Source: Gammaproteobacteria bacterium
GTDB taxonomy: Bacteria > Pseudomonadota > Gammaproteobacteria > UBA6429 > Thiohalophilaceae
Length of the DNA: 64,000 nucleotides
Assembly (NCBI GenBank): GCA_023135195.1
Contig: JAGLTQ010000100.1
Span: forward strand, 1 to 64,000
Direction: 5' to 3'
The notes below the pieces were generated by a model, which worked only from the letters and a program-made list of their open reading frames with translations, was not told the origin of the DNA and ran no database searches. Positions 12,967-46,508 of this stretch are shown here, piece by piece (the first letter of the stretch is position 1; each line of letters opens with the position of its first letter). The position numbers were made by a program, and so were the translations under genes.

Positions 12967-13557
12967 TTATTCATCAAGAGATGCTATTCTTTTATCTAAT
13001 AATGAAATGTTTTCTAATTTCCCGGCATTTCTCTTATTAATATCCACATCTAGATGATATGTATGATTTTTTATAAATTTTAGTTGAATATTAAGCCAGT
13101 CAAACTCATCAACTTCATTTTTAAAGCTTATAACCTCAGCCATCAGATCATTTCCCCTTACAACAAAATCATCTCTATGCAAAGAATCCAGATCAGAATC
13201 ACATATTATTTTTTCAAGCAAGGTAGAAGGTTTTTGAGGAATTTGAGTAGAAATAATTAATTTTGTAATTATTTCTATCTGTTCAGGATTGTAATCATAT
13301 TGAGGCAAAATTTCTTCGGCCATTTTTGCGCCAATACTTTCATTATTTTCATACTGCTGAAGATATCCTAAATCATGAAATAAAACAGCTGTTTTTAAGA
13401 TTGTTAAATTTCCCTGGTTAATATTTACCTTGCTGGCAAAAGTTATTGCTACAGGTAAAACATCACCCATCGTATGCCAGGCATTATGATATGTAAGCTT
13501 TGAATCAAGACCTTGAAGGCATTTCTCAACGTATGTTTTTACTTTAGAATATTGCAT
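12967..13557 (-). CDS. HD-domain phosphohydrolase
   Basis: This 196-residue protein carries the HD superfamily metal motifs: YHNAWHT (H24, H28), the FHDLGY doublet (H61-D62), and a downstream DSDLDSL segment supplying the distal Asp. HD proteins hydrolyse phosphoesters, including cyclic nucleotides and (p)ppGpp. Its start is 7 bases after the cyclase gene ends, on the same strand. The simplest inference is that it degrades or processes the nucleotide made by that cyclase, acting as a phosphodiesterase partner. No membrane segment is present, so it should be cytoplasmic. Confidence 0.8.
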   Translation of the reverse strand: MQYSKVKTYVEKCLQGLDSKLTYHNAWHTMGDVLPVAITFASKVNINQGNLTILKTAVLFHDLGYLQQYENNESIGAKMAEEILPQYDYNPEQIEIITKLIISTQIPQKPSTLLEKIICDSDLDSLHRDDFVVRGNDLMAEVISFKNEVDEFDWLNIQLKFIKNHTYHLDVDINKRNAGKLENISLLDKRIASLDE

Positions 13558-13563
13558 TAATGC

Positions 13564-15876
13564 TCATTTTTTATACATATGATATGCAGGTATTATTCCA
13601 TGCCCCTTAGGCAATACAACCTGACCAGCGTATGCAAAATTGAAATCACTAAGTTTTTCAACATTAGCCATTGCGGTAAATGTTTCACTTGCATATATAT
13701 ATCCAGGAGGTGTTATCGGCTCCATGCGTGCCGCACGATTAACGTAATCACCACATAGTTCCAGATTTTTAGTAACGGGTTCAATGTAAGAATAAACGGG
13801 GCCGGCATCAAGAGAAATCCGTATTGTTAAATCTTCTGGCAAGCCATATTCCTGCCATTGTGTAGCAACAATAATATTTTTTATCTCATTCGCGCATTCA
13901 GCAGCAATATTGAGTGAATTAAAAACGATAAAAAGTCCATCCCCTTGAGTACGTTTAATTAAAATACCTTCATTATATTTTTCAAACACCTCACTTATAT
14001 ATTTTAAAAAAACAGTAGAAAACGTTACTAACTGCTTCTCATTAAGTTTGCTATACCCTTTTACATCGGCAAATAAAAGAGGGAGAAAATTATAATAACC
14101 AACATCAGTACCGTAACTGGATAATTTGCATTCTATTAAAGATGGCAGAAACTTATTTTCATGAAGCGTAATTTCTCGGACACCATTAACCGGATCAATA
14201 ACAGTAATGGATGGATTTTCCCTTGACCATAAATCAATCACAGAAGATGTTCCACCAATGTTGTTATTAGTAACTCCATTCCATATGGATAAATATTCTA
14301 CTTCACTATTTATTACCTTTGCCCTGGCAACAGCAATACCTAAAACAAAGCGATTAGTAAAATCATAAGCAGGCTCATTAGTCACATCATTATATTGCGA
14401 CAAAATGACAACCCGACTTGCTTTATTTAATAAAACATCAAATCGATCACCCCAATTACCTTCTAGCACAGTATTAACGCTATGTTTTTTAAATCTTTCA
14501 ATGTCATGAGGAAGAATAATATTAATTTCCCCACCTTTACTAACAACCTCTTCAAGGAATAATATATCCGATCCACATGCTGCAGATGAATAAGCTATGC
14601 AATCCTCGTATTTACTTAATTGATTCTTAATTTCATTTCTAACAAAATTTTCTCTATTAGCAGGAAACCTGGCTACCTTTACACCAGGAACATCTATCAT
14701 ATGGCCTGAAAAAACGATTACCCTCGGTTTTTTAAAGAGCTCATCAAACATATCAAACTCAATATTTTTGAAGCTTAGTATTTTTTCTACTTGCTTATGC
14801 ATAGAGTTTTTTCCACGCATGTCTTTGCCAACTTTCACAATGGCTGACTGGTAAAATGATTTCGCAGACTCAATATCGCCTAACAATAATGCTGCCTCTC
14901 CCAACGTTGCATACACCCAATACATAACATCAATAGAATTACGTTCACTTTCATCTATAATCTGGTTGCAAATGGTTGTAACCTGGTTTGCTATTTTTAT
15001 GCTTTGTTCAGCTTCCCCTTGTAACAAGGCAATAGTAGCGGCATTAATACCATTATAATAAGCATTATTTTTATTTTTATTTTTTAATGATGTTTCAAAA
15101 GCAGTGAAATAACATTCAAATGATTTTTTTAAATATTCTTTTTTCTCTTTACCATTAACACCTTCTGAGAGTGCCATTTCTTTATATGTACGACCTAATA
15201 AACCCAATGTTGCACTATCTACTTCTTTAGAAATGGCATATAAATTATTTAATATTATTGAGGCCTCTTTAACTGCACCTGTTTCTGCCAATGCTAACGC
15301 CTGCTGCTGGTTTATATGGATATATAACCTTTGATTAACATCAGTAAGATTTACAGGATCAAGAAAACACTCTAAACCTTCTGAAAAAACATCATAGGCA
15401 AGAAGTGGTTCAGATGACTTCAAAAAACATAATCCGAGTTGGTAATATATATTTGGCTCAGACTGCCAACTCGTATAGTTATGTTCTCGCCAGAGAGAAA
15501 TAAGCTCTGGTAACAATAAGCTGCAATCCAGAATTGAGTTAAGCTGGTGGTCTACAACTAATTTTTCATGCTCAGACAAGATAACAGTATTAGGGGCTGT
15601 GATTGTATAGCCAAGCTTAAGAGTCAGCTTTAGCGTTTCTAATACACTATTACGATCATATTTTTTGTCATTTTCAGAGAGCTCATCATAAGGAACCAGG
15701 CAAGGATGCTGTTTATTAACATCATCTCTTCTCCCCCCATAAACCCATCCATTATCAAGCCGCTCTTGCGACCAGACTTCATGAATATTTCTGGAAAGTT
15801 GTTCTTGTAAATCAATTAATGATTTTTCAAGCTCAATGCCAGATGTATCAACGGATTTAGGAATATATTTTTCCAT
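13564..15876 (-). CDS. RyR-TPR-class III nucleotidyl cyclase
   Basis: The order in this 770-residue protein is as follows. A RyR domain (PF02026 type, about residues 30-90) has HEVWSQERLDNGW, KQHPCLVPYDEL and KKYDR. A TPR-like helical region spans about 120-370. A Rossmann-like segment (about 385-540) has GSDILFLEEV and recalls SLOG/TIR-type nucleotide-binding folds, though weakly. The C-terminal class III cyclase domain carries metal aspartates D604 (FADVKGY) and D646 (QGDGLF), and the transition-state Asn and Arg in VNRAARM. The base-selecting positions appear to be Lys (IKRTQ) and Glu (LELCGD) instead of the usual Lys/Asp of adenylate cyclases, so the product may be cAMP or another cyclic nucleotide. 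It is co-transcribed with the HD gene. Confidence 0.85.
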   Translation of the reverse strand: MEKYIPKSVDTSGIELEKSLIDLQEQLSRNIHEVWSQERLDNGWVYGGRRDDVNKQHPCLVPYDELSENDKKYDRNSVLETLKLTLKLGYTITAPNTVILSEHEKLVVDHQLNSILDCSLLLPELISLWREHNYTSWQSEPNIYYQLGLCFLKSSEPLLAYDVFSEGLECFLDPVNLTDVNQRLYIHINQQQALALAETGAVKEASIILNNLYAISKEVDSATLGLLGRTYKEMALSEGVNGKEKKEYLKKSFECYFTAFETSLKNKNKNNAYYNGINAATIALLQGEAEQSIKIANQVTTICNQIIDESERNSIDVMYWVYATLGEAALLLGDIESAKSFYQSAIVKVGKDMRGKNSMHKQVEKILSFKNIEFDMFDELFKKPRVIVFSGHMIDVPGVKVARFPANRENFVRNEIKNQLSKYEDCIAYSSAACGSDILFLEEVVSKGGEINIILPHDIERFKKHSVNTVLEGNWGDRFDVLLNKASRVVILSQYNDVTNEPAYDFTNRFVLGIAVARAKVINSEVEYLSIWNGVTNNNIGGTSSVIDLWSRENPSITVIDPVNGVREITLHENKFLPSLIECKLSSYGTDVGYYNFLPLLFADVKGYSKLNEKQLVTFSTVFLKYISEVFEKYNEGILIKRTQGDGLFIVFNSLNIAAECANEIKNIIVATQWQEYGLPEDLTIRISLDAGPVYSYIEPVTKNLELCGDYVNRAARMEPITPPGYIYASETFTAMANVEKLSDFNFAYAGQVVLPKGHGIIPAYHMYKK

Positions 15877-16101: not shown

Positions 16102-16560
16102 ATGTTTAACATAATGAATTCAGCTTCTAAAACAATATTGATACTTATTCTTGGCTTTCACACTCAGCATGCTAATGCATCAGGCCAACGATCCGCTACG
16201 ATTTCTCTTGATTCTGTAAAAACATATAACACATTAATGCTAGACAAAAAAACCTTAACTGAAAAGTATTTAAACTATGCAGGAACAGTAAATAATCATA
16301 CTCATATATTAATGGTGAAGAAGACCTCTTATTCTGAAGATTCAAATGGAAATATAGGAATGCCATGGAATGATGTTTATACTTATAAAATCGCTGTTGA
16401 TAAAATGACTATTGTTAACGGATGGGATTTAACCAAATTACTCAAGCAAAGACCGATTGAGATTAGCCCAGCTTTTTGTCCAATTCTGTATTTAACTCCA
16501 AACAAGAAAAAATACGTTATTTCAAACGAGAAAGGTATTAAATCTAACTGTTTAGATTAG
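16102..16560 (+). CDS. Exported protein, paralogue 1 (SGQR family)
   Basis: This 152-residue protein has a signal peptide ending near ANA-SGQR. It is a clear paralogue of the product at 39226-39687. The two share the mature N-terminus SGQR-S/T-A, the central LMVKKTS/LMVTKTS motif, and MTIVNGWDLT, which is also nearly identical in DNA. Two cysteines near the C-terminus (PAFCP and the terminal SNC) are conserved in the pair and may form a disulfide. The function is unknown. Both copies precede a tiny helical-protein gene and a TIR operon. The start could be the second ATG at 16114. Confidence 0.75.
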   Translation: MFNIMNSASKTILILILGFHTQHANASGQRSATISLDSVKTYNTLMLDKKTLTEKYLNYAGTVNNHTHILMVKKTSYSEDSNGNIGMPWNDVYTYKIAVDKMTIVNGWDLTKLLKQRPIEISPAFCPILYLTPNKKKYVISNEKGIKSNCLD

Positions 16561-16568
16561 ATTATTAT

Positions 16569-16733
16569 TTAACCAATCAAGTCTTCAATCAAATTATACT
16601 TCCTTAGAATTTTCACCGCCTGAATTTTCTTTCCCGCAGCCACATATTTATTAAATGCTTCTATATCATCAGATGGCGCAACCTTTAATAAATCATAGGT
16701 ATATTCATCCATTGTTTTAATTAATCTTTTCAT
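16569..16733 (-). CDS. 54-residue helical protein, paralogue 1
   Basis: This short gene encodes about 54 residues and is homologous to the frame at 41712-41867. The two share a KTMDEY N-terminal motif and an IQAVKILRKYNLIE C-terminal motif, with variable residues between. That is strong evidence of a real conserved gene, despite its size. The C-terminal motif faintly recalls the helix of ribosomal L7/L12 C-terminal domains. It is convergent with the exported-protein gene and divergent from the TIR-WD40 gene at 16925, the same layout as at the second site. A role as regulator or partner of the TIR operon is possible but unproven. Confidence 0.75.
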   Translation of the reverse strand: MKRLIKTMDEYTYDLLKVAPSDDIEAFNKYVAAGKKIQAVKILRKYNLIEDLIG

Positions 16734-16924: not shown

Positions 16925-19900
16925 ATGAGTCAACAACTAAAATATCACGCATTCATATCATATCGTCACGCAGATAATAAGGAGCAAGGTCGCCAATGGG
17001 CTACATGGCTGCATCAGGCTATTGAAACCTACGAAGTACCCAAAGATCTTATTGGTAAGAAAAATGGCTTAGGCGATATTATACCTGCACGAATTTACCC
17101 CATTTTTCGTGATGAAGAAGAATTACCTACACATGCTGATTTAGGACAGTCCATCGTAAAGGCACTTGATTCTACTCGTTTATTGATTATACTTTGCTCA
17201 CCCAATTCCGTCGCTTCAACCTATGTTGCTGATGAAATTGATTACTTTAAACGCCAAGGTGGAGCTTCTCGTATTATTGCTGCCATGATCGCAGGTGAAC
17301 CAAATGCTAGTTGGGACAAAGGCAAACAAGCTAGTGGTTTTAAAGTAGAAGATGAGTGCTTTCCCACCCCTCTTCAATATGAATATGATAATCATGGTAA
17401 CCGTACTGAAAACCATGCAGAACCTATTGCTGCTGATTTTAGAATCAATAACAATGGCCAAACCGAGCAAGGCTGGACATCACCCGAAGCTTACCGCCAA
17501 CATCTAAAGAACACTACAAAGCTTAACAACGAACAAATCCAAAAGAAAATAACTCAATATGATCAGCAGCAACATTTAATGCTACTGAAAATCATTGCAG
17601 GTATTTTGGGTGTAGCACTAGGAGAGCTGACACGACGAGATAAAGAATATCAGTTAGCTCAAGAACGTTTAAAAGCAAAAAAACTGCGCCGCTGGTTAAG
17701 TGCAGTAGCGATGTTATCTATTGTTGCTATTGGTGCCGGTGCTATTGCTTTAATGAAACAAAAAGAAGCTAAGATTGAACGGGATAAAGCGTTAAACAGC
17801 CAAAGTAACTTATTAATGGGGCTGGCTAAACAAGAAAGTGATAGAGGCCATTATGATACAGCATTACTATTGGGCTTAAATGCAATGCCAGGAATTTATG
17901 GTGGTGATCGCCCCATGCTGCCTATTTCTCATGAGTTACGTCGGGCTGTTGCAGGCAATAGAAAGTTGGTTGAATTCAGACATAAAGAGGATGTTAGCTA
18001 TGCCACCTTTAGCCCGGATAAAAAAATACTTGCCACAGTTTCAGAAGATGGTACCGCCATACTCTGGTCCGTTACATCTGGAAAAAAATTACAAATACTC
18101 CATCATAAAAAGGGCGTTAGACATATAACATTCAGTCCCGATGGTAAAACAGTAGTGACAGCATCATCTGATAGAACAGCAGCACTCTGGTCTGTTGCTA
18201 CGGGAGAAAAACTTCAAACTTTACAGCACAGGGTTGCCGTAGAACACGCAATATTCAGCCCTCATGGTTCAATAGTCGTTACAGTTTCATGGGATCAAAC
18301 CGTTGCTATTTGGCTAGTTGCCAGTGGTAAAAAGCTAATATCGCTCGATTTTGATTATGGCGTCAGACAAGTTACGTTTAATCCAAATGGTAAAATACTA
18401 TCAACCGTATCTAAAGATAAGGTAGTGCTATGGTCTATGAAAGATGGTCAGAAGCTGCACACGTTAAAGCATAAAAAAAATATTCATCATGCCTCATTCA
18501 GTTCAGATGGAAATTTTATCCTTACTACCTCAAGAGATAAGACAGCTGTAATCTGGTTAGTGAAAACCGGAAAAAAAATCAAAACATTTAAACATACTAA
18601 TGGGGTTAAATACGGAACATTTAGTTCAGACGGAAAAACCATCCTAACAGCATCTCACGATAATACTGCTGTTCTTTGGTCAACTGCCAGCGGGAAGAAA
18701 TTGCACACATTAAAACATAAAGCATCTGTGTTACATGCATCATTTAGTCCTGATGGAAAAACATTCGTTACAACATCTGTCGATAACACTGCTGTTCTAT
18801 GGTCAGTTAGTAATGGAAATAAATTACTAACACTGCAACACAAAGATAATGTCAATAATGCAATATTTAGTGGAAACGGACAAACTCTTGTTACAACATC
18901 TAATGATAAAACGGCTGCTCTCTGGAACATATCAAACAATGGAAAACCGTTAATTCTTCAACATAAAAACCAGGTCTATCACGCAGAATTTAGTTCAGAT
19001 GGAGAAACTGTACTCACTAGCCCATGGAATAAATCGGCAGCAATCTGGTCAACATCAACAGGTAAGAAGCTTGTAACATTAAAACATAAAGATATAATCA
19101 AACACGCAACTTTTAGCCCAAATGGAAAAACCGTTGCAACGGCATCGTCAGATAATACTGCAATAGTATGGTCGACAATAAATGCTGAAAAAATATTTAC
19201 AATGCAACATAAGCGTGATGTCGACCACGTAACATTTATAAATAATAAAACACTGCTTACATCCTCATGGGATAAAAGTGACGTCTTTTGGTCATTAACT
19301 ACCGGAAAGAAATTTTCTACATACAAACATAATAGTACAGTGGGAGCGCATGCAACACTTAGCCCTGATAAAAAGACTCTGTTTACACTTTTTGATAGCA
19401 AAGACAGATTTGGAACTAACTATGAAACAGGCTCACTTTGGTCTATTCAAACAGGCAAGAAATCATTCTCTTTAAAACACCGTTCAGCAATAAAACATGC
19501 TACGTTTAGTCCAGACTCATTAACGATACTGACAACTTCATGGGATAATACAGCGGTACTATGGTCAACATCAAGCGGAGAAAAACTTCATACATTCCAT
19601 CACAATGATGATGTCATACATGCTACATTTAGCCCTAATGGGCAGATATTAGTAACAGCATCAGAAGATAACACCGCTGTGATTTGGTTAGTAAAAACAG
19701 GTGAAAAAATACTTACACTACGGCATAAAGATGATGTCAACTATGTATCTTTTGATAAAGAGAGTAAGAAGCTACTAACGGCATCTGATGACAATACAGC
19801 TGTACTTTGGATAGTATCTACTGGAGAAAAAGTACAAACTTTTCAGCACAAGGATTTGGTAAAACAAGCAAAATTCAGTCCAGATGGAAAAACAGTACTG

Positions 19901-20086
19901 ACTGCATCAACCGACGACACAGCGGTTCTTTGGCCACTATATCCATATAACATTAAGGCAACAGCAATAAAAAGCCTACCAGCTAATCGAACCTGCTTAA
20001 CTCCAGAAGAACGTGAAAAATATTTCTTAAGTGAATTAACGAAAAAAGAATGGATAGCGCGTGGTTGCGCTCATTATGTAAAATAA
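16925..20086 (+). CDS. TIR-TM-WD40 protein
   Basis: In this 1,053-residue protein the N-terminal TIR domain (about 1-150) has HAFISYRHAD, the FRDEEELP loop, LLIILCSPNS and the putative catalytic Glu at E104 in VADEI, as in NAD-cleaving TIRs. A basic coiled region and one hydrophobic segment (about residues 258-276, SAVAMLSIVAIGAGAIAL) follow. From residue 353 come 16 WD40 repeats of about 41 residues, with consensus HATFSPDGKT and TAVLWS. The WD array is probably the sensor or scaffold and the TIR the effector. Its gene is divergent from the 54-residue gene and stands alone on this strand. Confidence 0.9.
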   Translation: MSQQLKYHAFISYRHADNKEQGRQWATWLHQAIETYEVPKDLIGKKNGLGDIIPARIYPIFRDEEELPTHADLGQSIVKALDSTRLLIILCSPNSVASTYVADEIDYFKRQGGASRIIAAMIAGEPNASWDKGKQASGFKVEDECFPTPLQYEYDNHGNRTENHAEPIAADFRINNNGQTEQGWTSPEAYRQHLKNTTKLNNEQIQKKITQYDQQQHLMLLKIIAGILGVALGELTRRDKEYQLAQERLKAKKLRRWLSAVAMLSIVAIGAGAIALMKQKEAKIERDKALNSQSNLLMGLAKQESDRGHYDTALLLGLNAMPGIYGGDRPMLPISHELRRAVAGNRKLVEFRHKEDVSYATFSPDKKILATVSEDGTAILWSVTSGKKLQILHHKKGVRHITFSPDGKTVVTASSDRTAALWSVATGEKLQTLQHRVAVEHAIFSPHGSIVVTVSWDQTVAIWLVASGKKLISLDFDYGVRQVTFNPNGKILSTVSKDKVVLWSMKDGQKLHTLKHKKNIHHASFSSDGNFILTTSRDKTAVIWLVKTGKKIKTFKHTNGVKYGTFSSDGKTILTASHDNTAVLWSTASGKKLHTLKHKASVLHASFSPDGKTFVTTSVDNTAVLWSVSNGNKLLTLQHKDNVNNAIFSGNGQTLVTTSNDKTAALWNISNNGKPLILQHKNQVYHAEFSSDGETVLTSPWNKSAAIWSTSTGKKLVTLKHKDIIKHATFSPNGKTVATASSDNTAIVWSTINAEKIFTMQHKRDVDHVTFINNKTLLTSSWDKSDVFWSLTTGKKFSTYKHNSTVGAHATLSPDKKTLFTLFDSKDRFGTNYETGSLWSIQTGKKSFSLKHRSAIKHATFSPDSLTILTTSWDNTAVLWSTSSGEKLHTFHHNDDVIHATFSPNGQILVTASEDNTAVIWLVKTGEKILTLRHKDDVNYVSFDKESKKLLTASDDNTAVLWIVSTGEKVQTFQHKDLVKQAKFSPDGKTVLTASTDDTAVLWPLYPYNIKATAIKSLPANRTCLTPEEREKYFLSELTKKEWIARGCAHYVK
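17981..19953 (+). repeat. Sixteen tandem WD40-coding repeats
   Basis: Sixteen in-frame units of about 123 bases, each starting with a His-Lys type codon pair, make up the C-terminal two-thirds of the TIR-WD40 gene. The units are much more alike than typical blades. Unit 12 carries a short insert and unit 11 is slightly shortened. Sixteen units would build two full propellers. The similarity suggests recent expansion, with a high chance of unit gain or loss. Confidence 0.85.
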
Positions 20087-20110: not shown

Positions 20111-22381
20111 TTATAATTTAAGCACATCATCAAAAAACAGAATAAATAATGAAAACGTAAGAACAAATAAAGATACACCAAGCACAGTTGTAATTTTAAC
20201 GAGCCAACGCCAAACTATATGTCCTTGATAAACATTTGAGGCAGCCCAAATAGATCTTGATACAACAAAAACATATGCCGCAAACCAGAAAATAACTAAT
20301 GGTGAATGAGATAAAAAATAAAGGAAAAAATTAATAAAACTTCCAAATACACCAAACAGCCAAAATGTTATGGGCAAACCATAACCACCATCAGTTAATT
20401 TTAAATAACTAAATCCTTTGGTTTTTTTAAATAAATTTACAGGCAAGTGCAGAATATAATTAACAAAACCACCTGTTTTTTTGATTAACCCACTACCCTT
20501 AGTTCGTTCGTGATTTTTAGTATTGAACACATTAAATACTGACTTTATTTTTGAAGAACCATTGACAATGGATTTTTTAAAATCATATTTATTCTTTAAA
20601 TTATTAAATAACGATTCATGTTGCCTGGTTGTTTGCTCGAGATTATCTAAATCTACAAGCAACTCTTCTACACTCTGATAACTTATTTCTTGAGTTGTTT
20701 GAAGACACTTATTAATAACTTTAATTAAACTTTCACTACAACCATTAAAATTTGTCTCTGAATCTACATATTTACGGAAATCTCCTGAAGCATCTCCAGT
20801 AATAAGACTCTTCATAAGAATGCCTATTGAACAAATGTCCGTACGAAGATGCAACTCTGAACCAAGGTAAATAGGCCCCCAAATTTGATAAGGATCAAAT
20901 TCTGGATCTCTTTCCGCCATTTCATTTAAAAACCCCTGATTCTTTTGATAAAAACTCTCTTCCGCTTTACCTAGGTAATTTATTAAAAATAGACGCTCAT
21001 CATGCTTACGTATATAGATATTTCTAAGGTTAATATGCCCATGAAACAGACCTTTAGAATAAACCTCAGAAAGTCCTGTCAATAATTGCTGAACTAACCC
21101 TATTATTTGATTTTCAGAGAAGGGTTTATTATTACGTTCAATAATAAGTTTTTCCAGGATCATTCCATCTGAATAATCCATAACAAGATAGGCCGTTCCA
21201 TTATCAGTAAAAAAATCACGATTACTAATAATAGCAGGTGATTTTTTAAACTGTGTTAACCGTTTGGCACCGAATAGATACTCATCAAGTTCAGCCTTAC
21301 TTATTTCTGATCGTTGACTTCGAGTACTTGGATAAAACTCCTCTATTACCACCTCTTCATCAAGTTGCGTGTGTTTTGCTTTATACACAAAATAAAGCCG
21401 ATCATTCCTTAATGTTTCTGTAATAACATATTGATTTAAAACAGTACCATCAGGCAAAGATTCTCTATAAAACACCTCTTCCGTACTCGTTTCATCAGTA
21501 AGTGCTGCAACTAATTCATCAACACTTTGAAAGCGCTCTTCTTCATTGATCAATAAACATTTATCAATCGCTTGTAGAAAACCAACACTATACTCACCCG
21601 CGCCAACTTCTACAGCAGGAATTAAAGGATCAGGTTTTCGCTTAATCATAGCAGTTAAACGTTTATTCACATTTACTGGATTTTGCCCACTAATGACTCG
21701 CCATATAACTGCGCCAAGTGCATATATATCAGTCCAGGGACCTAAACTCCCTTCATCACTGACTTGTTCCATTGGAACATAACCCACGGTATATGGCGAC
21801 ATCGATTTACTGTGTTTTGAATAGTTTTGTTTAGCTGCACCAAAATCAATAAGAAGAGGTTGCTCATCACCACGCCGGATAAAAATATTAGCTGGCTTAA
21901 TATCGCGATGTAATACCCCTTTTTCGTGCACGAACCTTAAACCATCAAGAAGAGACAGCATCATATTTAAAAGTTGTTTTTCACTTAAAGGTTCATTATT
22001 ACGTGCTCTTAGTAATTCACTAAGCGATAAACCCTCTTCAAAGTCCATTACCAAATAAGCCGTACCATTCTCTGTAAAAAAATCACGGCAGCTGACTATA
22101 TTAGGTAGTTTTTTAAACTGAATGAGTTGCTTGGCTTCATCTAAAAACCGAGCTAAACCTTCATCATAATCATCTTGTTCTTGATTACTTAACGGGTGAA
22201 TAGTCATACCTTCACGTGTGGCTATTTCAGAGGGTAGATACTCTTTAATAACAACAGCTTCATCTAAGTGAGTGTGTTTGGCTTTATAAACAATACCAAA
22301 ACCACCATAAGCAATCATGGATTCAATTTTATATTGTTGTAATACTGTGCCATTAGTTAGGGCATTTTTATGAGAAGTCAT
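20111..22381 (-). CDS. Ser/Thr kinase-pseudokinase membrane protein
   Basis: In this 756-residue protein the first Hanks-type kinase (about 15-300) is intact: GGFGIVYKA loop, K46, HRD at 158-160 with IKPANIF, and DFG at 179-181. A second kinase-like domain (about 316-590) keeps the fold but has Glu347 for the Lys, HGH at 447-449 for HRD and NYL at 468-470 for DFG, so it should be inactive. Three hydrophobic segments end the protein. The first domain is closely similar to that at 27314. It is the last gene of the sigma-small-GAF-subtilase operon. The pseudokinase probably regulates the active half. Confidence 0.92.
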   Translation of the reverse strand: MTSHKNALTNGTVLQQYKIESMIAYGGFGIVYKAKHTHLDEAVVIKEYLPSEIATREGMTIHPLSNQEQDDYDEGLARFLDEAKQLIQFKKLPNIVSCRDFFTENGTAYLVMDFEEGLSLSELLRARNNEPLSEKQLLNMMLSLLDGLRFVHEKGVLHRDIKPANIFIRRGDEQPLLIDFGAAKQNYSKHSKSMSPYTVGYVPMEQVSDEGSLGPWTDIYALGAVIWRVISGQNPVNVNKRLTAMIKRKPDPLIPAVEVGAGEYSVGFLQAIDKCLLINEEERFQSVDELVAALTDETSTEEVFYRESLPDGTVLNQYVITETLRNDRLYFVYKAKHTQLDEEVVIEEFYPSTRSQRSEISKAELDEYLFGAKRLTQFKKSPAIISNRDFFTDNGTAYLVMDYSDGMILEKLIIERNNKPFSENQIIGLVQQLLTGLSEVYSKGLFHGHINLRNIYIRKHDERLFLINYLGKAEESFYQKNQGFLNEMAERDPEFDPYQIWGPIYLGSELHLRTDICSIGILMKSLITGDASGDFRKYVDSETNFNGCSESLIKVINKCLQTTQEISYQSVEELLVDLDNLEQTTRQHESLFNNLKNKYDFKKSIVNGSSKIKSVFNVFNTKNHERTKGSGLIKKTGGFVNYILHLPVNLFKKTKGFSYLKLTDGGYGLPITFWLFGVFGSFINFFLYFLSHSPLVIFWFAAYVFVVSRSIWAASNVYQGHIVWRWLVKITTVLGVSLFVLTFSLFILFFDDVLKL

Positions 22382-27313: not shown

Positions 27314-29698
27314 TTAGTTAATTTCCTGAACAAGGCGAAATCCAAACTTATATTTTTTATTAGTAGCTTTTTCTGGACGTCGATTAGCTACCCGTATTCC
27401 TTTATGATTAGATGTCCAACCACCCCCACGCACTATTCGTTTATTACAATTCCCAGTTAACCAAGCATTTCCATTTTTAGGAGCTCCTTTATAATTATCG
27501 TTATAGCAATCTTGAGTCCATTCCCACACATTGCCATGCATATCATAAAGGCCAAAGTCGTTGGAACGATAACTACCTACTATAGCTGTCCCATTCAACA
27601 CACCATCATTTTTGTAATAACATCCTGAAGATTTAGTTCCACTATATTGTGCTTTAGAACAGCTTACTGAATTACCCCAGCTATACTTACTACGGCTACC
27701 TGCACGGGCTGCATATTCCCACTCTGATTCTGTAGGTAAACGGAAGCGCGTCCCTGTTTGTTTACTAACCCATTTAGCAAAATTTCGAGCATCCTGCCAA
27801 GTTACATATATAACAGGTCGATTACCTCGACCAAAACTATTGTCTTTTAGCTTATTTTTACCTACAGCTCTTGCATATGCATCATACTGATTAAAGGTGA
27901 CTTCTTTGGACATCATTTTAAAAGCAGATAATTTGACGGAGTGAACAGGCTTTTCATCAGAGCTATACGTTGATCCCATACGAAAGCTACCTGATGGTAT
28001 ATTTACCATTTCCCCAACATACCCATGTGCAGCAGCAGCCTTTGCAGCCGCTTTAGCTGCAGCTTTTTCTTTAGCCGCCTTAATTTCTTTTAGTTTCGCT
28101 ATTCGCTTTTTTTCAGCTTCTGCAATAGCTTGTTTTTGTTTAGCCACCTCATCGGGCTCCATCCATTTCCCTCTATACTTTATTAAGTTTCCACCTTTTA
28201 AAGTGTAATCACCTTTTAAGGTTTGTTTCTTTTGAACATAAATATTCTCTTTTAAATTATAGAACTTATCTTTCTTTAGAGTTAAAACGTGTTTCCCAGC
28301 AGTTATATTTAATAATGTTGCCGGTGTCGTTTTTTGTGTATATTTATAATCGACATAAATTCGTGCTCCTTCAGGTGTACTAAACACACTGAAATTGCCT
28401 GTAGCAAGTTTAAGCTTGAATTTTTCTTTACTAATAACATTATCTTCTAATGTTATTGTTTTATTCATATCCTGATAATCAGCATGAGTGAGTTTGATTG
28501 TATGCTTTCCAGCCGGAAGATTACTCCCTACATAAGGCGTTTGACCAAGCAAATGCTCATCCAAATACAAATTAGCACCTCGTGGTTGACTATTTATATG
28601 TAGAACAGCTTTACCTTTGGCGAGTTCATTAGATACTTGAAAAGCAAAAATAGCACCAGCAAAAATAATAGCTAGTCCTGTAAAAACAGCCACTCTTTTA
28701 AGTAAAGGTTTTTTAGATTCAGTCACATGTGAATTGTGTGATTTTTTAGCATTAGGTTTTTTATTTTCTATAGCTGCATCAATTGGCGCTACTATCTCAA
28801 CATTATTAATTTCATGTAAAGCTGAAATTAATTCATTCACACTCTGATAACGGTCGCTATCATTTAATGCCGTACATTTATCAATAATGGTAAGGAGTTC
28901 TTCTGAGTAATTATTGTCAGCCACTTCTTTTGCAGAAACAAAAGGGTCAGGTTGCCCTTTGATAACAGCCGTAAGCCGTTTATTAACATCAACAGGATTC
29001 TGGCCGCTAATGATTCGCCACATCACAGCACCAATAGCATAGATATCAGTCCATGGTCCTAATTCACCATCATCACTGATTTGTTCCATGGGTGCATAAC
29101 CCACTGTAAACGGTGCCATGGATTTTGAGTGTTTTGAGAAGTTTTGTTTTGCTGCACCAAAATCAATTAACAGGGGTTGCTCATCTTCACGGCGAATAAA
29201 AATATTACCGGGTTTAATATCCCGATGCAAAACACCTTTGTCATGCACAAAAGCTAAACCATCTAACAAGGCTAGCATCATATTTAATAAATGCTCTTCA
29301 CTTAGAGGGTCGTTGTTTCGTGCTTTCATTAACTCACTGAGAGACAAACCTTCTTCAAAGTCCATAACCAGATACGCTGTACCATTAAGCGCAAAAAAAT
29401 CACGGCAACTAACAATATTTGGATGTTGTTTAAACTGAACGAGTTGTTTGGCTTCGGCTAAAAAACGATCAAGACCATCCTGGTAATCGTTTTCAACACT
29501 GCCACTTAACGGATGAACGGTTGTCCCTTCTCGTGTCGCAACTTCTGAAGGCAGATATTCTTTTATTACAACCACTTCATCTAAATGAGTATGTCGTGCC
29601 TTATATACAATACCGAAACCACCATGAGCAATAATGGATTCTATTTTATATTTATCTATTACTGTTCCATTTGCTAGGGCGTTTTTATGATCTGACAT
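27314..29698 (-). CDS. Ser/Thr kinase-TM-PEGA-FGE sulfatase-modifying-fold protein
   Basis: In this 794-residue protein the N-terminal Hanks kinase (about 15-300) is intact, with K46, HRD 158-160 and DFG 179-181. One transmembrane helix (about 335-357) follows, then two PEGA domains (about 365-500) with INSQPRGANLYLDE and FSTPEGARIYVD. A Lys/Ala-rich helix and a C-terminal FGE/SUMF1 domain (about 565-794) with GSFRMGS, RLPTESEWEYAAR and GNVWEWTQD complete it. The RGGGW segment lacks the paired cysteines of true formylglycine-generating enzymes, so it is probably a binding domain. The topology puts kinase inside and PEGA/FGE outside, as a receptor kinase. Confidence 0.92.
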   Translation of the reverse strand: MSDHKNALANGTVIDKYKIESIIAHGGFGIVYKARHTHLDEVVVIKEYLPSEVATREGTTVHPLSGSVENDYQDGLDRFLAEAKQLVQFKQHPNIVSCRDFFALNGTAYLVMDFEEGLSLSELMKARNNDPLSEEHLLNMMLALLDGLAFVHDKGVLHRDIKPGNIFIRREDEQPLLIDFGAAKQNFSKHSKSMAPFTVGYAPMEQISDDGELGPWTDIYAIGAVMWRIISGQNPVDVNKRLTAVIKGQPDPFVSAKEVADNNYSEELLTIIDKCTALNDSDRYQSVNELISALHEINNVEIVAPIDAAIENKKPNAKKSHNSHVTESKKPLLKRVAVFTGLAIIFAGAIFAFQVSNELAKGKAVLHINSQPRGANLYLDEHLLGQTPYVGSNLPAGKHTIKLTHADYQDMNKTITLEDNVISKEKFKLKLATGNFSVFSTPEGARIYVDYKYTQKTTPATLLNITAGKHVLTLKKDKFYNLKENIYVQKKQTLKGDYTLKGGNLIKYRGKWMEPDEVAKQKQAIAEAEKKRIAKLKEIKAAKEKAAAKAAAKAAAAHGYVGEMVNIPSGSFRMGSTYSSDEKPVHSVKLSAFKMMSKEVTFNQYDAYARAVGKNKLKDNSFGRGNRPVIYVTWQDARNFAKWVSKQTGTRFRLPTESEWEYAARAGSRSKYSWGNSVSCSKAQYSGTKSSGCYYKNDGVLNGTAIVGSYRSNDFGLYDMHGNVWEWTQDCYNDNYKGAPKNGNAWLTGNCNKRIVRGGGWTSNHKGIRVANRRPEKATNKKYKFGFRLVQEIN

Positions 29699-36633: not shown

Positions 36634-38847
36634 ATGTGTAAAAAAACATGGTGTTTTGTTACTTTCTTTAGCTATATATTTTTTGTTAATTCAACTTATT
36701 CCAGAAGCATTATGGACGATCAGCTTCCGCCTGATAATAATGGAAGCTACCAAACAATCATTATAGAAAACGGTACGGAGCTAAAGTCGACAAAAGATGT
36801 ACAACAATGGGCTCAAAAAGAATTACACAACTGGATGGGCCTATCTGAAAATGATCAACTTGATATAAGTTTCCCCGAAAAATCAAAAGGAAATTATAAG
36901 TTTTATCGCATCGAACAAAAACACCATGGAATTCCAGTTATAGGACTTGAAGCAACACTATTAACATTCAAAGGGAAACCGGATTATATATTAGGCCGTA
37001 ATCACGCTATTAATAATATTCGACACAAACCATCCATCACCGAACAACAAGCAATTAACAATAGTAAAGTGATTACTGATAAAAAGAATGAAATTAATTT
37101 AGTTTACTGGCGCAAATCAAAAAGTGATATCACTTTAAGTTATGAAATTACAGGTACCTTTGAATACAAATCTGGTACAAGAGATGAAAAAGTTTATGTT
37201 AATGCTGTCAATGGAAAAATCCATAATCGAGTAGCATTAGAATATAGTTCGATTAAAAGACATATTGTTGATGTTGAATCCGCGTGTCGGGATCTTGGTA
37301 TCAACCGACCTGTTTCTTCCAAAAAAATGAATAAAGTTTTAGATCATGCAATTCGAAATTTTTCCCGAAAAGAAGGTGATGCCCCTACAGGCATAGAAAC
37401 GACTGATTATTTTTATGATCTAATGGGAAGTGCTTATATATTCCTGAAAACAACATATAACATGGATAGCCTTAATGATTCGGGTATGTATTTAAATGGT
37501 ATTGGCCGAATACGATTTAATCAGCATGTCAAAGGCATACAGTGTACTGGCAATGATTTTAATGCTTTTTGGAATGGCCATGCAAATGCACTTTTTGTAC
37601 CTGACTCAGCTATAAAATATACTGAGGTCGTTGCTCATGAGCTTGCTCATGGCATTGTTAGCAATGGCAGCAACCTTGTTTATCAAGATCAATCCGGAGC
37701 ATTAAATGAAGCCATTGCAGATGCTATTGGCGTTACATTCAGAGCATGGTTAGAATCAGGTGGGAATGAAAATAATGCTGTTACTAAAATAAATACAAGA
37801 AGAGGCATTTGGAAATTAAGAAGTCCCAGAGGCATTTTAAGGGATATGAAAACCCCTAAAAATGCTGATCCCAAATTACCGGATCATATGAGTAGCTATG
37901 TGTACACCAGTCGAGACCACGGTGGTGTTCATATAAATTCGAGTATTATCAATCAAGCATTTTATATTCTAAGTAAAGGTGGCAAACATCCCAGACGAAG
38001 AACCGGCTCCCGAGTTAAAGGCATAGGTATTAAGAAAGCGAGTCAAATATTCGCTCTCGCTGCCAGTCATATTTTAACTCCTACATCAGATTTTAAAGAT
38101 GCACGTTATGCCTTTGCCCGTGCCGCCAAGGTTCTATTTGGCAAACGTTCTCATGCCTGGGTTGCTGTGCATAAAAGTATGGATGCCGTAGGTATATCTG
38201 GCAAATGGAGTATCCCTAAGCCAAGAAAGGTTGTTGTTATTCCTCCAGCTAAAACAACAACAAAGAGTACTACAAAAATACCGACTACAAGTACAAGCTC
38301 AACTAAAACAGCTCAGGTTCCCTCAAAAACTTCAAAAACAAAAGGGAAATCAACAACAAAATCTAAATCACATTCATCTAATTCAAAAATATGGATAGCC
38401 CTTATAATTATTGGCGCTATGTTAATTATTTTTGTTTTGATAAAAATGCGACCTAATGATAAGCAAGTCGTCGGACAGTTTGAGAGAGAGACTGATAAGT
38501 CTGATGAAAATAATAAGGATTCAATTAATCAAAATATATTTGGTCATCTTGAAGCTTTAGATGGTACTGAAGCTATCCCATTAAACAATGCATTATTAGA
38601 CAGTGAAGAAGGTTTGATTATCGGTAGAGCGCATGAACTAGTTCACATCATCATGGAAAACAAAGATATTTCGCGACGTCATTCACGTATTAAATTATTT
38701 AACTCTCAACTATATATAGAAGACATGAATTCAACTTATGGTACACAAGTTGATGGTGTCAAACTCAGTCCATTTAAACCTTCTAAAATCAGTGAACAAC
38801 AAATTGTACGTTTTGCGGGGTTCTCTTATCAGCTAAAGTTAGGTTGA
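36634..38847 (+). CDS. Thermolysin-family (M4) protease-TM-FHA protein
   Basis: This 737-residue protein starts with a signal peptide, then an FTP/PepSY propeptide region (about 45-205). The M4 catalytic domain (about 230-525) is complete: HELAH at 335-339, zinc ligand E359 and proton donor H433 in GVHINSS. A Thr/Ser-rich linker, one transmembrane helix (about 587-606) and a cytoplasmic FHA domain (about 640-737; LIIGRAHE, ISRRHSRI, STYGTQVDG) follow. M4 enzymes are normally secreted, so a membrane-tethered form with a phosphothreonine reader is unusual. It is translationally linked to the transmembrane PP2C gene. Confidence 0.93.
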   Translation: MCKKTWCFVTFFSYIFFVNSTYSRSIMDDQLPPDNNGSYQTIIIENGTELKSTKDVQQWAQKELHNWMGLSENDQLDISFPEKSKGNYKFYRIEQKHHGIPVIGLEATLLTFKGKPDYILGRNHAINNIRHKPSITEQQAINNSKVITDKKNEINLVYWRKSKSDITLSYEITGTFEYKSGTRDEKVYVNAVNGKIHNRVALEYSSIKRHIVDVESACRDLGINRPVSSKKMNKVLDHAIRNFSRKEGDAPTGIETTDYFYDLMGSAYIFLKTTYNMDSLNDSGMYLNGIGRIRFNQHVKGIQCTGNDFNAFWNGHANALFVPDSAIKYTEVVAHELAHGIVSNGSNLVYQDQSGALNEAIADAIGVTFRAWLESGGNENNAVTKINTRRGIWKLRSPRGILRDMKTPKNADPKLPDHMSSYVYTSRDHGGVHINSSIINQAFYILSKGGKHPRRRTGSRVKGIGIKKASQIFALAASHILTPTSDFKDARYAFARAAKVLFGKRSHAWVAVHKSMDAVGISGKWSIPKPRKVVVIPPAKTTTKSTTKIPTTSTSSTKTAQVPSKTSKTKGKSTTKSKSHSSNSKIWIALIIIGAMLIIFVLIKMRPNDKQVVGQFERETDKSDENNKDSINQNIFGHLEALDGTEAIPLNNALLDSEEGLIIGRAHELVHIIMENKDISRRHSRIKLFNSQLYIEDMNSTYGTQVDGVKLSPFKPSKISEQQIVRFAGFSYQLKLG

Positions 38848-43463: not shown

Positions 43464-46400
43464 ATGGCTAAGATAAATACACTATCACAAGAAAATAGTT
43501 CTTATAAAGCATTTATTTGCTGTAGTTCTACTGAACATGAATGGGGGCATTGGTTAAAAAAAGCATTTACAAAATATAAGATACCCCGCTCGTTAATTGG
43601 AACTCAGAGAAGAGATGGAACAGTCGGACAGAAAATTGGGGATGTATATCTTGATTTAAATGAAACATCAAAAAGCTCTAATCTAGGTGCCCGGATACAG
43701 AGTGATTTAGAAAAAGCATCTTATCTTATTGTAATCTGTTCACCTGCAGCAGCCCGCTCCGAATGGATTGCCGAACAAATTATCGAGTTTAAACGACAAG
43801 GTAAAGAAAACAGAATTCTCTCATTTATTATAGACGGCGAACCTAATGCTATAAATAAACCTGAATTAGGACTGGAAGAATGCTTTCCTGACGCATTAAA
43901 ATATTGCATTGGTTCAGATGGGCAGTTAACAAATAAACGAACCGAACCCATTGCCGCCGATGCTAGACCAGGAAAAGATGGCAAAACGAATGCCTCCTTA
44001 AAAATATTAGCCGGTCTCTTAGGTGTTAATTATAATGATTTACGACAAAGGGAAGTTATACGTAAACGTCGCAAACAGTTGTTAGCAACGACTACTGTAA
44101 TTATTATTATAGGTGGATTATTTTCCTGGTGGCTAAAGGGATATCTGGAAACACTGGAAAAGCAACAGCTAGTCGATATTGCAGAAATAAAAAGAGACCT
44201 GGCAAGCGCACGAAAAGCTATCTCATTAAAAAATTGGCCATTAGCCATTCGGTTATTAAAAAACACAGTGATAAGTAATGATGACTTAATAAATGATAAA
44301 CAAAGACAAAGAATCGCTGTTGACCTTCATTACGCCTTACAGAAAAATAAAAAAATAACAGTTCTAAAAAACCATACTTCAGCAATTGTATCAATGGATT
44401 TCAGTCCCAATGGCCTTTTATTTGCCAGCTCTGATAAAGAAGGTAATATCATTATCTTCAATAGAAAAACGTGGATAGAAGTTGCTCGATTTAAAGATAA
44501 GAAGCCACGTAATATCTGGTTCTCAAGTGATAGCAAACAACTTATTTCTCTAGCGAAAGAGTCATGGGGCGACAGTTATGTTAAAAGCTATAACACCAAC
44601 TCTATGATTGAAAAAACTATTTTTAGCATAGACGATAAAGTCAGAAATATAAATGCTAAGTACTGGAGTCATAATCGAGATTATATAATCGTTAAAGATT
44701 GGAATGACAACCTAATACTGAAGAAACTTGAGAATGACAAGATTATTACTATCACAAATCCTGAAAAATTCTCGATAAGTCAGGTATTACTCGACCTTTC
44801 AAAAGAATCGATATTTATTTTCGATGCAAAAAAAGGTTTGATAAAAAAAGAGCTGAAAACAGGAAAACTATTATTCAAGAATATTCAATGTAAACATACT
44901 TATAATTCCTTGCCGGTTTTTTCAGATAATTATTCTAAATTAGTCGTAAGAAGTGAACGTAATAAATTTATATTATGTGATTTAGGCAATAAAAACATAA
45001 ATTTTACAATTAATACACGATACAGAGATCAAGTTCAGTTTAATCCAAAAGGCGACAAAATATGGTTTAAACGTGGTCATTCTCAAATAACGTGGGATAC
45101 ACATACACATCTGTTTGATAAAAGTATGGTTTTTCCAATAGTTGAACTATTAAATAATTCAATCGATACAAGCTTGAACAAACTTAAAACAAGCTATGAA
45201 TCAATATGGATTAAATCAAAAGATAATGATGTGGCAGCTCTTACAAACAGTAGCGTAATAGAAATTATTGATATATCAGCTCCTCATTCAATAAGTACTA
45301 ATAAATTACCTCCACTAAAAAGAGTTGAGGAAGGCGATCATGGATTTCATGCAGCGTACTTGAATACTATCCAGTCTAACAAACTCCAACTGTTAAATAA
45401 GTTTTTTACTGCACAAGGGGCTACCTTCAAGTTAGCCGATGGTAAAGTTTTAAAAATGCTTTCACCCTCTATTGGTGAAAAATATATAGTTAGAGTCGAA
45501 AAAAAGATTGGTTTATCTGAGTGGCCAGAATTAACCGTTTCTGAGTTTGATTCAGGAAAAACTATTTTTCATGTTGAAAAACTCACTACCTGGGCCTTTG
45601 ATAAATCTCGTGCTCACCTTATATTCATACAAAAAGGTGGTGAGCTGCAATCAATAGATTTTTCAAAAACATCCATAGAAATAAAACCAATTAATTTACC
45701 TGCAACGGAGGGCTTCTCACGGTTCTTCGGTGGAAATAATAAAGATTATTTTATACGAATATCGGCTGATTATAAAATAAACATTATTAAGCTAAAAACA
45801 TTAGACGTTATGCCCCCTATTCAACTTGACATTCCATCTGAAGAAAAAAAGTGGGGGAGTCCTGTTTATGGAACCATAAAAGCAATATTTGATAATCGTT
45901 TTTTATTAATAAAAAGTAATAATCAGCTCTCTGTAATAAATTTAGAAAACCGATTACCACCGAAAATAATAGAAAGAACTCAGGGTGCCTCGCTATATAA
46001 AGCGATTCAATTTCCACGCATTCTAATTCAGCAAGCTAACAATAATGTACAAGAAATTGATGTGACAGAAGAAACACCAAGACATACATATTCATCATTA
46101 CCACTATTTTTTAATGGTGTGGCAACTTCGCTTTCTGATAATTATTTAATTTTATATGATTATAATGATATTTACTGGATTAACAGAAGAAAGGAAACCA
46201 CCACAAAATTACGCTGTGCAGACGAAAATGCAGAACATTATAAGTTTGATAAAAATAATAATATATTAATAGTCGCATCATCAAAAAACATTTGTGTATT
46301 AGACTCAGAGTCTTTATTGCCCGTTTCCCATCAATCTTTACCCAGCAAAATAATGAGCATTTTTCTTCAACAGAAAGACAGCTTTTCTGTTCTCCTTGAA

Positions 46401-46508
46401 TCTGGTAACCAATTATTATTCAAAATCAACTTATCTTTACCTGTCTTACTTAAAAATGCAGATAATGAACTTGCCTTTATCTATGAAAGAAAATTAAAAA
46501 AATTATAA
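43464..46508 (+). CDS. TIR-TM-beta-propeller protein, copy 2
   Basis: In this 1,014-residue protein the TIR domain (about 10-150) has KAFICCSST, LIVICSPAAA and the putative catalytic E104 in WIAEQI. The FRDxEELP loop of the other two TIRs is replaced by YLDLNETS, a notable divergence. One transmembrane helix (about 211-230) is followed by a C-terminal region with scattered WD-like blades (FSPNGLLF, FNPKGDK), much less regular than in the 16925 gene. It lies in the operon with the next TIR gene, 3 bases apart. The propeller half probably recognises a target or a partner. Confidence 0.85.
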   Translation: MAKINTLSQENSSYKAFICCSSTEHEWGHWLKKAFTKYKIPRSLIGTQRRDGTVGQKIGDVYLDLNETSKSSNLGARIQSDLEKASYLIVICSPAAARSEWIAEQIIEFKRQGKENRILSFIIDGEPNAINKPELGLEECFPDALKYCIGSDGQLTNKRTEPIAADARPGKDGKTNASLKILAGLLGVNYNDLRQREVIRKRRKQLLATTTVIIIIGGLFSWWLKGYLETLEKQQLVDIAEIKRDLASARKAISLKNWPLAIRLLKNTVISNDDLINDKQRQRIAVDLHYALQKNKKITVLKNHTSAIVSMDFSPNGLLFASSDKEGNIIIFNRKTWIEVARFKDKKPRNIWFSSDSKQLISLAKESWGDSYVKSYNTNSMIEKTIFSIDDKVRNINAKYWSHNRDYIIVKDWNDNLILKKLENDKIITITNPEKFSISQVLLDLSKESIFIFDAKKGLIKKELKTGKLLFKNIQCKHTYNSLPVFSDNYSKLVVRSERNKFILCDLGNKNINFTINTRYRDQVQFNPKGDKIWFKRGHSQITWDTHTHLFDKSMVFPIVELLNNSIDTSLNKLKTSYESIWIKSKDNDVAALTNSSVIEIIDISAPHSISTNKLPPLKRVEEGDHGFHAAYLNTIQSNKLQLLNKFFTAQGATFKLADGKVLKMLSPSIGEKYIVRVEKKIGLSEWPELTVSEFDSGKTIFHVEKLTTWAFDKSRAHLIFIQKGGELQSIDFSKTSIEIKPINLPATEGFSRFFGGNNKDYFIRISADYKINIIKLKTLDVMPPIQLDIPSEEKKWGSPVYGTIKAIFDNRFLLIKSNNQLSVINLENRLPPKIIERTQGASLYKAIQFPRILIQQANNNVQEIDVTEETPRHTYSSLPLFFNGVATSLSDNYLILYDYNDIYWINRRKETTTKLRCADENAEHYKFDKNNNILIVASSKNICVLDSESLLPVSHQSLPSKIMSIFLQQKDSFSVLLESGNQLLFKINLSLPVLLKNADNELAFIYERKLKKL

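What the first reader, a model, noticed from the sequence alone, without database searches (positions are those of the whole stretch)
13564..15876. RyR-TPR-Rossmann-cyclase fusion as a possible ligand-triggered messenger maker
RyR domains in bacteria are rare, and fusion to a class III cyclase through TPRs makes a plausible sensor enzyme. The second base-selecting position looks like Glu rather than Asp, so the product may not be cAMP. A Pycsar-like use of a pyrimidine cyclic nucleotide is conceivable.
Basis: partly seen in the sequence, partly recalled or inferred. Interest (0 to 1): 0.72.

Follow-up and report, generated by a model that had tools for sequence, protein, structure and literature searches.

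The report
RyR sensor fused to nucleotide cyclase
A bacterial gene joins two sensor parts of kinds known to bind NAD-derived alarm molecules (a ryanodine-receptor-type domain and a SLOG domain) to an enzyme that should make a cyclic nucleotide, beside a gene of the type that makes such alarm molecules, which suggests a relay in which one immune messenger switches on a second.

Summary
Window 13564-15876 (-) is one intact 770-aa gene: RyR (PF02026, E 6e-32), TPR-S helical repeats (PF20308), a Rossmann domain and a class III cyclase. The Rossmann domain folds as SLOG (YpsA Z 16.5; weaker to TRPM2 and to cADPR-bound ThsA). TPR-S-SLOG(-cyclase) genes sit within about 5 kb of a TIR gene in 11 of 14 genomes that have few TIRs (0.08 expected; set not chosen blind). 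The window has a TIR-WD40 gene of the same subfamily, divergent, 1 kb away, and an HD phosphohydrolase gene 6 nt downstream. All three genes are absent from close relatives. The RyR keeps the four ligand residues of the phage enzyme RyDEP (2'/3'cADPR) at identical spacing. The cyclase keeps its metal and transition-state residues, but its base-selecting residues are Arg642/Gln644/Glu706, not Lys/Asp; Phe602/Arg642/Gln644 match the cytidylate cyclase EaPycC by position. Best reading: a cyclase gated by TIR-made ADP-ribose signals, product probably not cAMP (cCMP favoured). It is not a Pycsar member: no Pycsar profile match and no PycTM. A Priestia plasmid does carry PycTM, cyclase-TPR-S, RyR and TIR side by side. 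Function is inferred, not shown.

The parts
13564..15876 (-). RyR-TPR-S-SLOG-class III cyclase fusion gene, 770 aa
   Evidence: Intact ORF; Pfam; AF2 model pLDDT 83.8
15598..15867 (-). RyR domain (aa 4-93); keeps H32, W35, H57, D74
   Evidence: PF02026 E 6.3e-32; spacing 3/22/17 identical to RyDEP H75/W78/H100/D117
14743..15591 (-). TPR-S helical repeat region (aa ~96-378)
   Evidence: PF20308 E 1.3e-16 at aa 183-282; all-helical in the model; Chromatiales homologue of RyR+TPR-S, E 1e-80 on the TPR-S part (L020)
14188..14727 (-). SLOG-fold (YpsA/DprA-like Rossmann) domain (aa ~384-563)
   Evidence: Domain folded alone, pLDDT 80.8; YpsA Z 16.5, TRPM2 8.9, ThsA SLOG+3'cADPR 6.4; conserved family
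13567..14100 (-). Class III nucleotide cyclase domain (aa 593-770): metal D604, D646; N713, R717; base-selecting R642, Q644, E706
   Evidence: PF00211; Z 20-23; residue table
12967..13557 (-). HD-domain phosphohydrolase gene, 6 nt after the cyclase stop; possible signal phosphodiesterase
   Evidence: PF01966 E 5e-5; HD motif and 6-nt junction; absent from same-genus genomes
16925..20086 (+). Divergent TIR-TM-WD40 gene, likely signal generator
   Evidence: TIR subfamily alignment with TIRs next to TPR-S-SLOG genes elsewhere, Glu kept; absent from sampled relatives
16102..16560 (+). 152-aa ORF with a signal-peptide-like start, between the two divergent genes; membership uncertain
   Evidence: ORF list; no family match

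Best explanation
The gene encodes a nucleotide cyclase gated by NAD-derived signals. The neighbouring membrane-anchored TIR-WD40 protein is activated by some stress (phage infection is the likeliest) and converts NAD+ into ADP-ribose or a cyclic ADPR. That molecule binds the RyR and/or SLOG domain, the TPR-S array passes on the change, and the C-terminal class III domain, acting as a homodimer, makes a cyclic mononucleotide that is probably not cAMP (cCMP favoured). The HD protein may end the signal by hydrolysing it. The receptor is not identified. Shown: gene structure, folds, kept active-site residues, the altered base-selecting residues, and the recurring TIR neighbour in other genomes. 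Inferred: ligand, product, activation, partner identity and role in defence.
For: RyR keeps all four ligand/catalytic residues of RyDEP at the same spacing. The SLOG fold is shared with ThsA (3'cADPR) and TRPM2 (ADPR). TPR-S-SLOG(-cyclase) genes have a TIR gene within about 5 kb in 11 of 14 genomes, 0.08 expected. The window TIR is of the same subfamily. Bacterial RyR genes are also near TIR genes: 35 of 80 loci; adjacent genes 19/139 against 12/359 farther away, p 9e-5. Priestia plasmid: PycTM + cyclase-TPR-S + RyR + TIR. CRP-family cNMP-binding genes beside five of these loci. Metal Asp, Asn and Arg kept; R642/Q644/E706 unlike all 47 other distinct cyclases aligned. F602/R642/Q644 match EaPycC F100/R142/Q144 relative to the metal Asps. 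RyR-cyclase, HD and TIR genes are all absent from close relatives.
Against: The window TIR gene is divergent and separated by about 1 kb and a 152-aa ORF, not co-operonic as elsewhere; the contig holds two more TIRs of that family. No pNTSase1, PycTM or CRP-type gene next to it. No full-length orthologue was found; the only close one is cut by a contig end after TPR-S (L020). Most phage RyR homologues tested bind but do not cleave cADPR, so binding versus hydrolysis is open. Arg/Glu could be a charge-conserving form of Lys/Asp, hence still an adenylate cyclase. The ThsA-SLOG similarity is weak (Z 6.4).
Confidence: 0.5

Rival explanations
1. The RyR domain is an enzyme or sponge that removes the TIR-made signal (as phage RyDEP does), so the fusion is a brake or self-protection device, and the cyclase reports on or is relieved by signal removal.
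For: RyDEP hydrolyses 2'/3'cADPR with a His/Asp dyad that is kept here (H32, D74); small RyR genes lie next to TIR genes.
Against: Covalent fusion to a TPR-S sensor and a signal-making cyclase looks more like input than disposal; none of the eight further phage homologues tested cleaved cADPR, six only bound it.
Confidence: 0.2
2. An ordinary adenylate cyclase with unusual sensory domains; the product is cAMP acting on CRP-like receptors, not part of defence.
For: R642/E706 conserve the charges of Lys/Asp; the genome has 11 cNMP-binding domain hits; CRP-type genes lie beside related loci.
Against: Relatives of the subfamily mostly use Asn-x-Trp and no Asp; the gene is accessory and absent from relatives; TIR neighbours recur.
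Confidence: 0.2
3. A true Pycsar system: the cyclase makes cCMP or cUMP that opens a membrane effector.
For: EaPycC-like Phe/Arg/Gln residues; PycTM in the Priestia locus with the same parts.
Against: No match to any PADLOC model; no PycTM in the genome, which is 86% complete; no CNBD-TIR or PycTM effector adjacent.
Confidence: 0.12
4. The cyclase domain is catalytically dead and only binds a nucleotide as a regulatory part of a TIR defence complex.
For: Most related TPR-S cyclases have lost the transition-state Asn.
Against: In this protein both metal Asps, Asn713 and Arg717 are present.
Confidence: 0.1

Closest known systems
TPR-S (PF20308) systems with TIR and pNTSase1 (PF20301) neighbours; as I recall, predicted by Burroughs and Aravind by comparative genomics (paper not held, recollection only)
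   Same: TPR-S sensor plus SLOG plus cyclase, TIR gene nearby, same TIR subfamily
   Different: Extra N-terminal RyR domain; TIR divergent; no pNTSase1 or CRP gene adjacent; HD gene in the operon; unique base-selecting residues
RyDEP, phage RyR-domain anti-Thoeris protein (PMC13232231)
   Same: PF02026 domain with the same four ligand/catalytic residues and spacing
   Different: Here it is a cellular domain fused to a cyclase, not a free phage protein; activity unknown
Thoeris (ThsA/ThsB)
   Same: TIR gene plus a protein with a SLOG domain that may sense cADPR
   Different: Output would be a cyclase, not Sir2 or another NADase effector; different SLOG subfamily (nearer YpsA)
Pycsar (PycC with PycTM or PycTIR)
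   Same: Class III cyclase; Phe/Arg/Gln positions as in clade E EaPycC
   Different: No Pycsar profile match, no PycTM, large sensor N-terminus
Priestia aryabhattai plasmid NZ_CP128553 locus
   Same: RyR, TPR-S, class III cyclase and TIR in one cluster
   Different: Parts in separate genes and other order (cyclase-TPR-S, free RyR), PycTM present, Asn-x-Trp cyclase, no SLOG match found in it

Membership tests
Pycsar | Class III cyclase with two metal Asp and transition-state Asn/Arg | tested here: met
   D604, D646, N713, R717
Pycsar | Pyrimidine-selecting residues | tested here: inconclusive
   F602/R642/Q644 match EaPycC F100/R142/Q144 by position; not assayed
Pycsar | Match to a Pycsar profile | tested here: not met
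   No PADLOC model at E<=0.1 or up to 10
Pycsar | Adjacent PycTM or PycTIR effector | tested here: not met
   No PycTM in the own genome, 86% complete; neighbouring genes carry no CNBD-TIR or PycTM
RyR domain family PF02026 / RyDEP-like | PF02026 match | tested here: met
   E 6.3e-32, aa 4-93
RyR domain family PF02026 / RyDEP-like | His, Trp, His, Asp ligand residues at RyDEP spacing | tested here: met
   H32, W35, H57, D74 against H75, W78, H100, D117
RyR domain family PF02026 / RyDEP-like | Binding or hydrolysis of 2'/3'cADPR | not testable with these tools
   Needs purified protein
TPR-S / TIR systems | TPR-S domain (PF20308) | tested here: met
   E 1.3e-16
TPR-S / TIR systems | TIR gene close by | tested here: met
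   TIR-WD40 gene about 1 kb away, divergent, same subfamily
TPR-S / TIR systems | pNTSase1 gene between TIR and TPR-S | tested here: not met
   Intervening ORF 16102-16560 has no such match; seen in L134 and L148
Thoeris | TIR signal producer plus SLOG sensor fused to an effector | tested here: inconclusive
   TIR adjacent; SLOG fold present but ThsA SLOG only Z 6.4; no known ThsA effector domain found
SLOG superfamily | SLOG Rossmann fold | tested here: met
   YpsA Z 16.5, 159 aligned, rmsd 3.0

The most novel reading that the evidence does not exclude
A two-messenger immune relay: TIR-made cyclic ADP-ribose binds a RyR-SLOG double sensor and switches on a fused cytidylate cyclase, so a Thoeris-type input is converted into a Pycsar-type output in one polypeptide.
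Probability: 0.22. Interest if true: 0.85.

Novelty: new variant of a known kind. Interest (0 to 1): 0.62.

Why it matters
RyR domains are the place in ryanodine receptors where adenine ligands and dantrolene bind, and cADPR action on those channels is a long-standing question. A bacterial enzyme with a RyR domain wired to a cyclase gives a simple readout of what a RyR domain senses. If true it would also show that NAD-derived and cyclic-nucleotide immune messengers can be chained, and it points to a broad group of TIR + TPR-S-SLOG-cyclase loci that could be tested the same way.

Tried and rejected
Scans of genome and viral collections with the whole protein gave no relatives. PADLOC and NCBIfam gave nothing for the fusion. 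phmmer and profile searches of the PDB with the cyclase did not list any PycC among the rows shown, so sequence relationship to PycC was not supported. PycTM sought in the own genome: none. The CNBD gene 49702-50730 was considered as receptor; its C-terminal part recurs in several relatives that lack the cyclase, so it is not specific. The HD homologue on an annotated plasmid had no cyclase next to it. The Tolypothrix cyclase (49% identical over the last 97 aa) is a fragment with no other part of the protein left, so its TIR-WD40 neighbour is weak evidence. L198's large neighbour looked DUF4062-like by eye, but Pfam did not list it among the rows shown. Assembly artefact rejected: same RyR-TPR-S fusion in an independent Chromatiales contig.

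Full report
Observation. The ORF at 13564-15876 (-) is intact, 770 aa. Pfam finds RyR at aa 4-93 (E 6.3e-32), TPR-S at 183-282 (1.3e-16) overlapping a MAP3K TRAF-binding match (9e-9), and a class III cyclase at 600-760 (6e-6). The Rossmann part has no Pfam match. A model of the whole protein has mean pLDDT 83.8, and its cyclase part matches solved cyclases at Z 20-23. The Rossmann domain folded alone (pLDDT 80.8) is a SLOG fold: YpsA Z 16.5, DprA about 11-12, LOG about 10, TRPM2 8.9, ThsA SLOG with 3'cADPR 6.4. The ThsA and TRPM2 values are moderate and show fold, not ligand.

RyR domain. The 2026 preprint PMC13232231 shows that phage RyR-domain proteins bind 2'/3'cADPR and that one, RyDEP, hydrolyses them with His75 and Asp117, with Trp78 and His100 in the site. 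In the window protein the residues are H32, W35, H57, D74, with exactly the same spacing of 3, 22 and 17 residues. Among 94 RyR matches in fetched genomic loci, 72 keep that full pattern. So an ADP-ribose-type ligand is the best guess; binding versus cleavage cannot be told from sequence, since none of the eight further phage homologues tested there cleaved the signal and six bound it.

RyR and TIR in other bacteria. A scan with an alignment of four RyR domains gave 296 confirmed places and 80 loci, most from Bacteroidota and Bacillota. Of these, 35 carry a TIR gene within the fetched flanks. TIR genes make up 19 of 139 immediate neighbours and 12 of 359 genes four or more away, Fisher p 9e-5. 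Pfam agrees: 10 of 58 immediate upstream same-strand genes match TIR_2 and 10 match RyR. No class III cyclase was found in these 80 loci, so RyR plus cyclase is rare.

TPR-S, SLOG and cyclase. Searching the phylum for TPR-S showed two layouts: TPR-S-SLOG-cyclase and cyclase-TPR-S. Around the first type, a TIR gene recurs, often as TIR, small gene, TPR-S-SLOG(-cyclase). In 14 genomes other than the window's, which hold 1-9 TIR_2 matches each, 11 have one within about 5 kb of the TPR-S gene; 0.08 genomes would be expected if TIR positions were random. I picked the genomes after seeing some neighbourhoods, so the exact probability should not be trusted, but the excess is large. The small gene matches pNTSase1, 'predicted novel nucleotide synthetase', in two loci, and a CRP-family cNMP-binding regulator lies beside five loci that I picked by eye. 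Cyclase-TPR-S genes have TIR or ThsB-type TIR neighbours in Priestia, L135 and L138. One TPR-S-SLOG locus has both TIR and DUF4062 neighbours (L201); DUF4062 is reported as a TIR-like NADase (PMC13174449). As I recall, TPR-S and pNTSase1 systems were predicted by comparative genomics by Burroughs and Aravind; that paper is not held, so this is recollection.

The window locus. The TIR-WD40 gene 16925-20086 (+) is divergent from the fusion gene and about 1 kb away. Its TIR, the following conserved block (EPIAAD...; LKIIAGILGV) and the membrane segment align with the TIRs that sit beside TPR-S-SLOG genes, and the Glu at the position of the TIR catalytic residue is kept. The HD gene 12967-13557 starts 6 nt after the cyclase stop, with an intact HD motif. 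The fusion gene is absent from the other relatives searched apart from a weak cyclase-only match. The HD gene has only weak distant matches, and the TIR part has no strong match in 23 relatives. The three genes therefore share the same narrow distribution, which fits joint acquisition but rests on one genome.

Cyclase residues. Metal D604 and D646, N713 and R717 are all present. The base-selecting positions are R642 (first), Q644 and E706 (second). None of 47 other distinct class III cyclases aligned has Arg or Gln at the first two; standard ones mostly show Lys, and the TPR-S-linked ones mostly Asn-x-Trp. In EaPycC, a cCMP-making enzyme, F100, R142 and Q144 select CTP, with metal residues D102 and D146 (PMC11224242). 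The window residues F602, R642 and Q644 have the same offsets to D604 and D646. This makes cCMP the favoured product, but Arg/Glu is also a charge-conserving form of the adenylate pair, so cAMP stays open. I give about 0.4 to cCMP, 0.25 to cAMP and the rest to cUMP, cGMP or none (judgement, not computed).

Pycsar link. The window gene matches no PADLOC model, and the genome has no PycTM, so I do not file it as Pycsar. A plasmid of Priestia aryabhattai does hold, side by side, PycTM (PADLOC E 1.7e-29; PF18967 1.2e-11), a cyclase-TPR-S gene, a free RyR gene and a TIR gene. The same parts in another order in another phylum suggest one functional module whose output can be a Pycsar effector.

Independent copy. 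A Chromatiales contig (L020) encodes RyR plus TPR-S in one frame, 56% identical to the window protein over the stretch held, and ends inside TPR-S. The RyR fusion is therefore not an assembly error; whether that gene goes on to SLOG and cyclase is unknown. No second full-length copy was found in 369 genomes of the class.

Verdict. New variant of a known kind: a TPR-S-SLOG-cyclase protein with an added RyR sensor, probably gated by TIR-made ADP-ribose signals. Sequence, folds and neighbourhoods are shown; ligand, product, activation and role are inference.

Noticed in passing
window 43464-46508, 46512-49655 and 49702-50730 (+): Two more TIR-WD40 genes of the same subfamily followed by a cyclic-nucleotide-binding protein (PF00027 E 7.5e-23); all three TIR_2 matches of this genome lie in this window.
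   Followed up: partly
L019-L098: Free RyR genes of gut bacteria often lie beside TIR genes, and 16 loci have more than one RyR gene; a general RyR-TIR link in bacteria.
   Followed up: partly
L132, L134, L142, L143, L148: TPR-S-SLOG loci flanked by CRP-family regulators and, in two, by pNTSase1: a candidate TIR to cyclase to CRP transcription pathway.
   Followed up: partly
L043:8285-10195: TrkA_N (ion-channel regulatory) protein with a weak C-terminal RyR match, directly after a free RyR gene and next to a divergent TIR gene in Cytobacillus; similar in Neobacillus L077.
   Followed up: no
window 20111-22381 (-), 27314-29698 (-), 36634-38847 (+): Protein with two kinase-like segments, kinase-PEGA-FGE-sulfatase protein, and M4 peptidase-FHA protein: a signalling/conflict island around the finding.
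   Followed up: no
window 16572-16733 (-): Possible small ORF (about 54 aa, MKRLIKTMDEYTYDLL...) between the 152-aa ORF and the TIR gene.
   Followed up: no
L012:4869-5303: Tolypothrix plasmid keeps only the last part of a related cyclase (49% identical) directly before a TIR-WD40 gene of another TIR type.
   Followed up: partly
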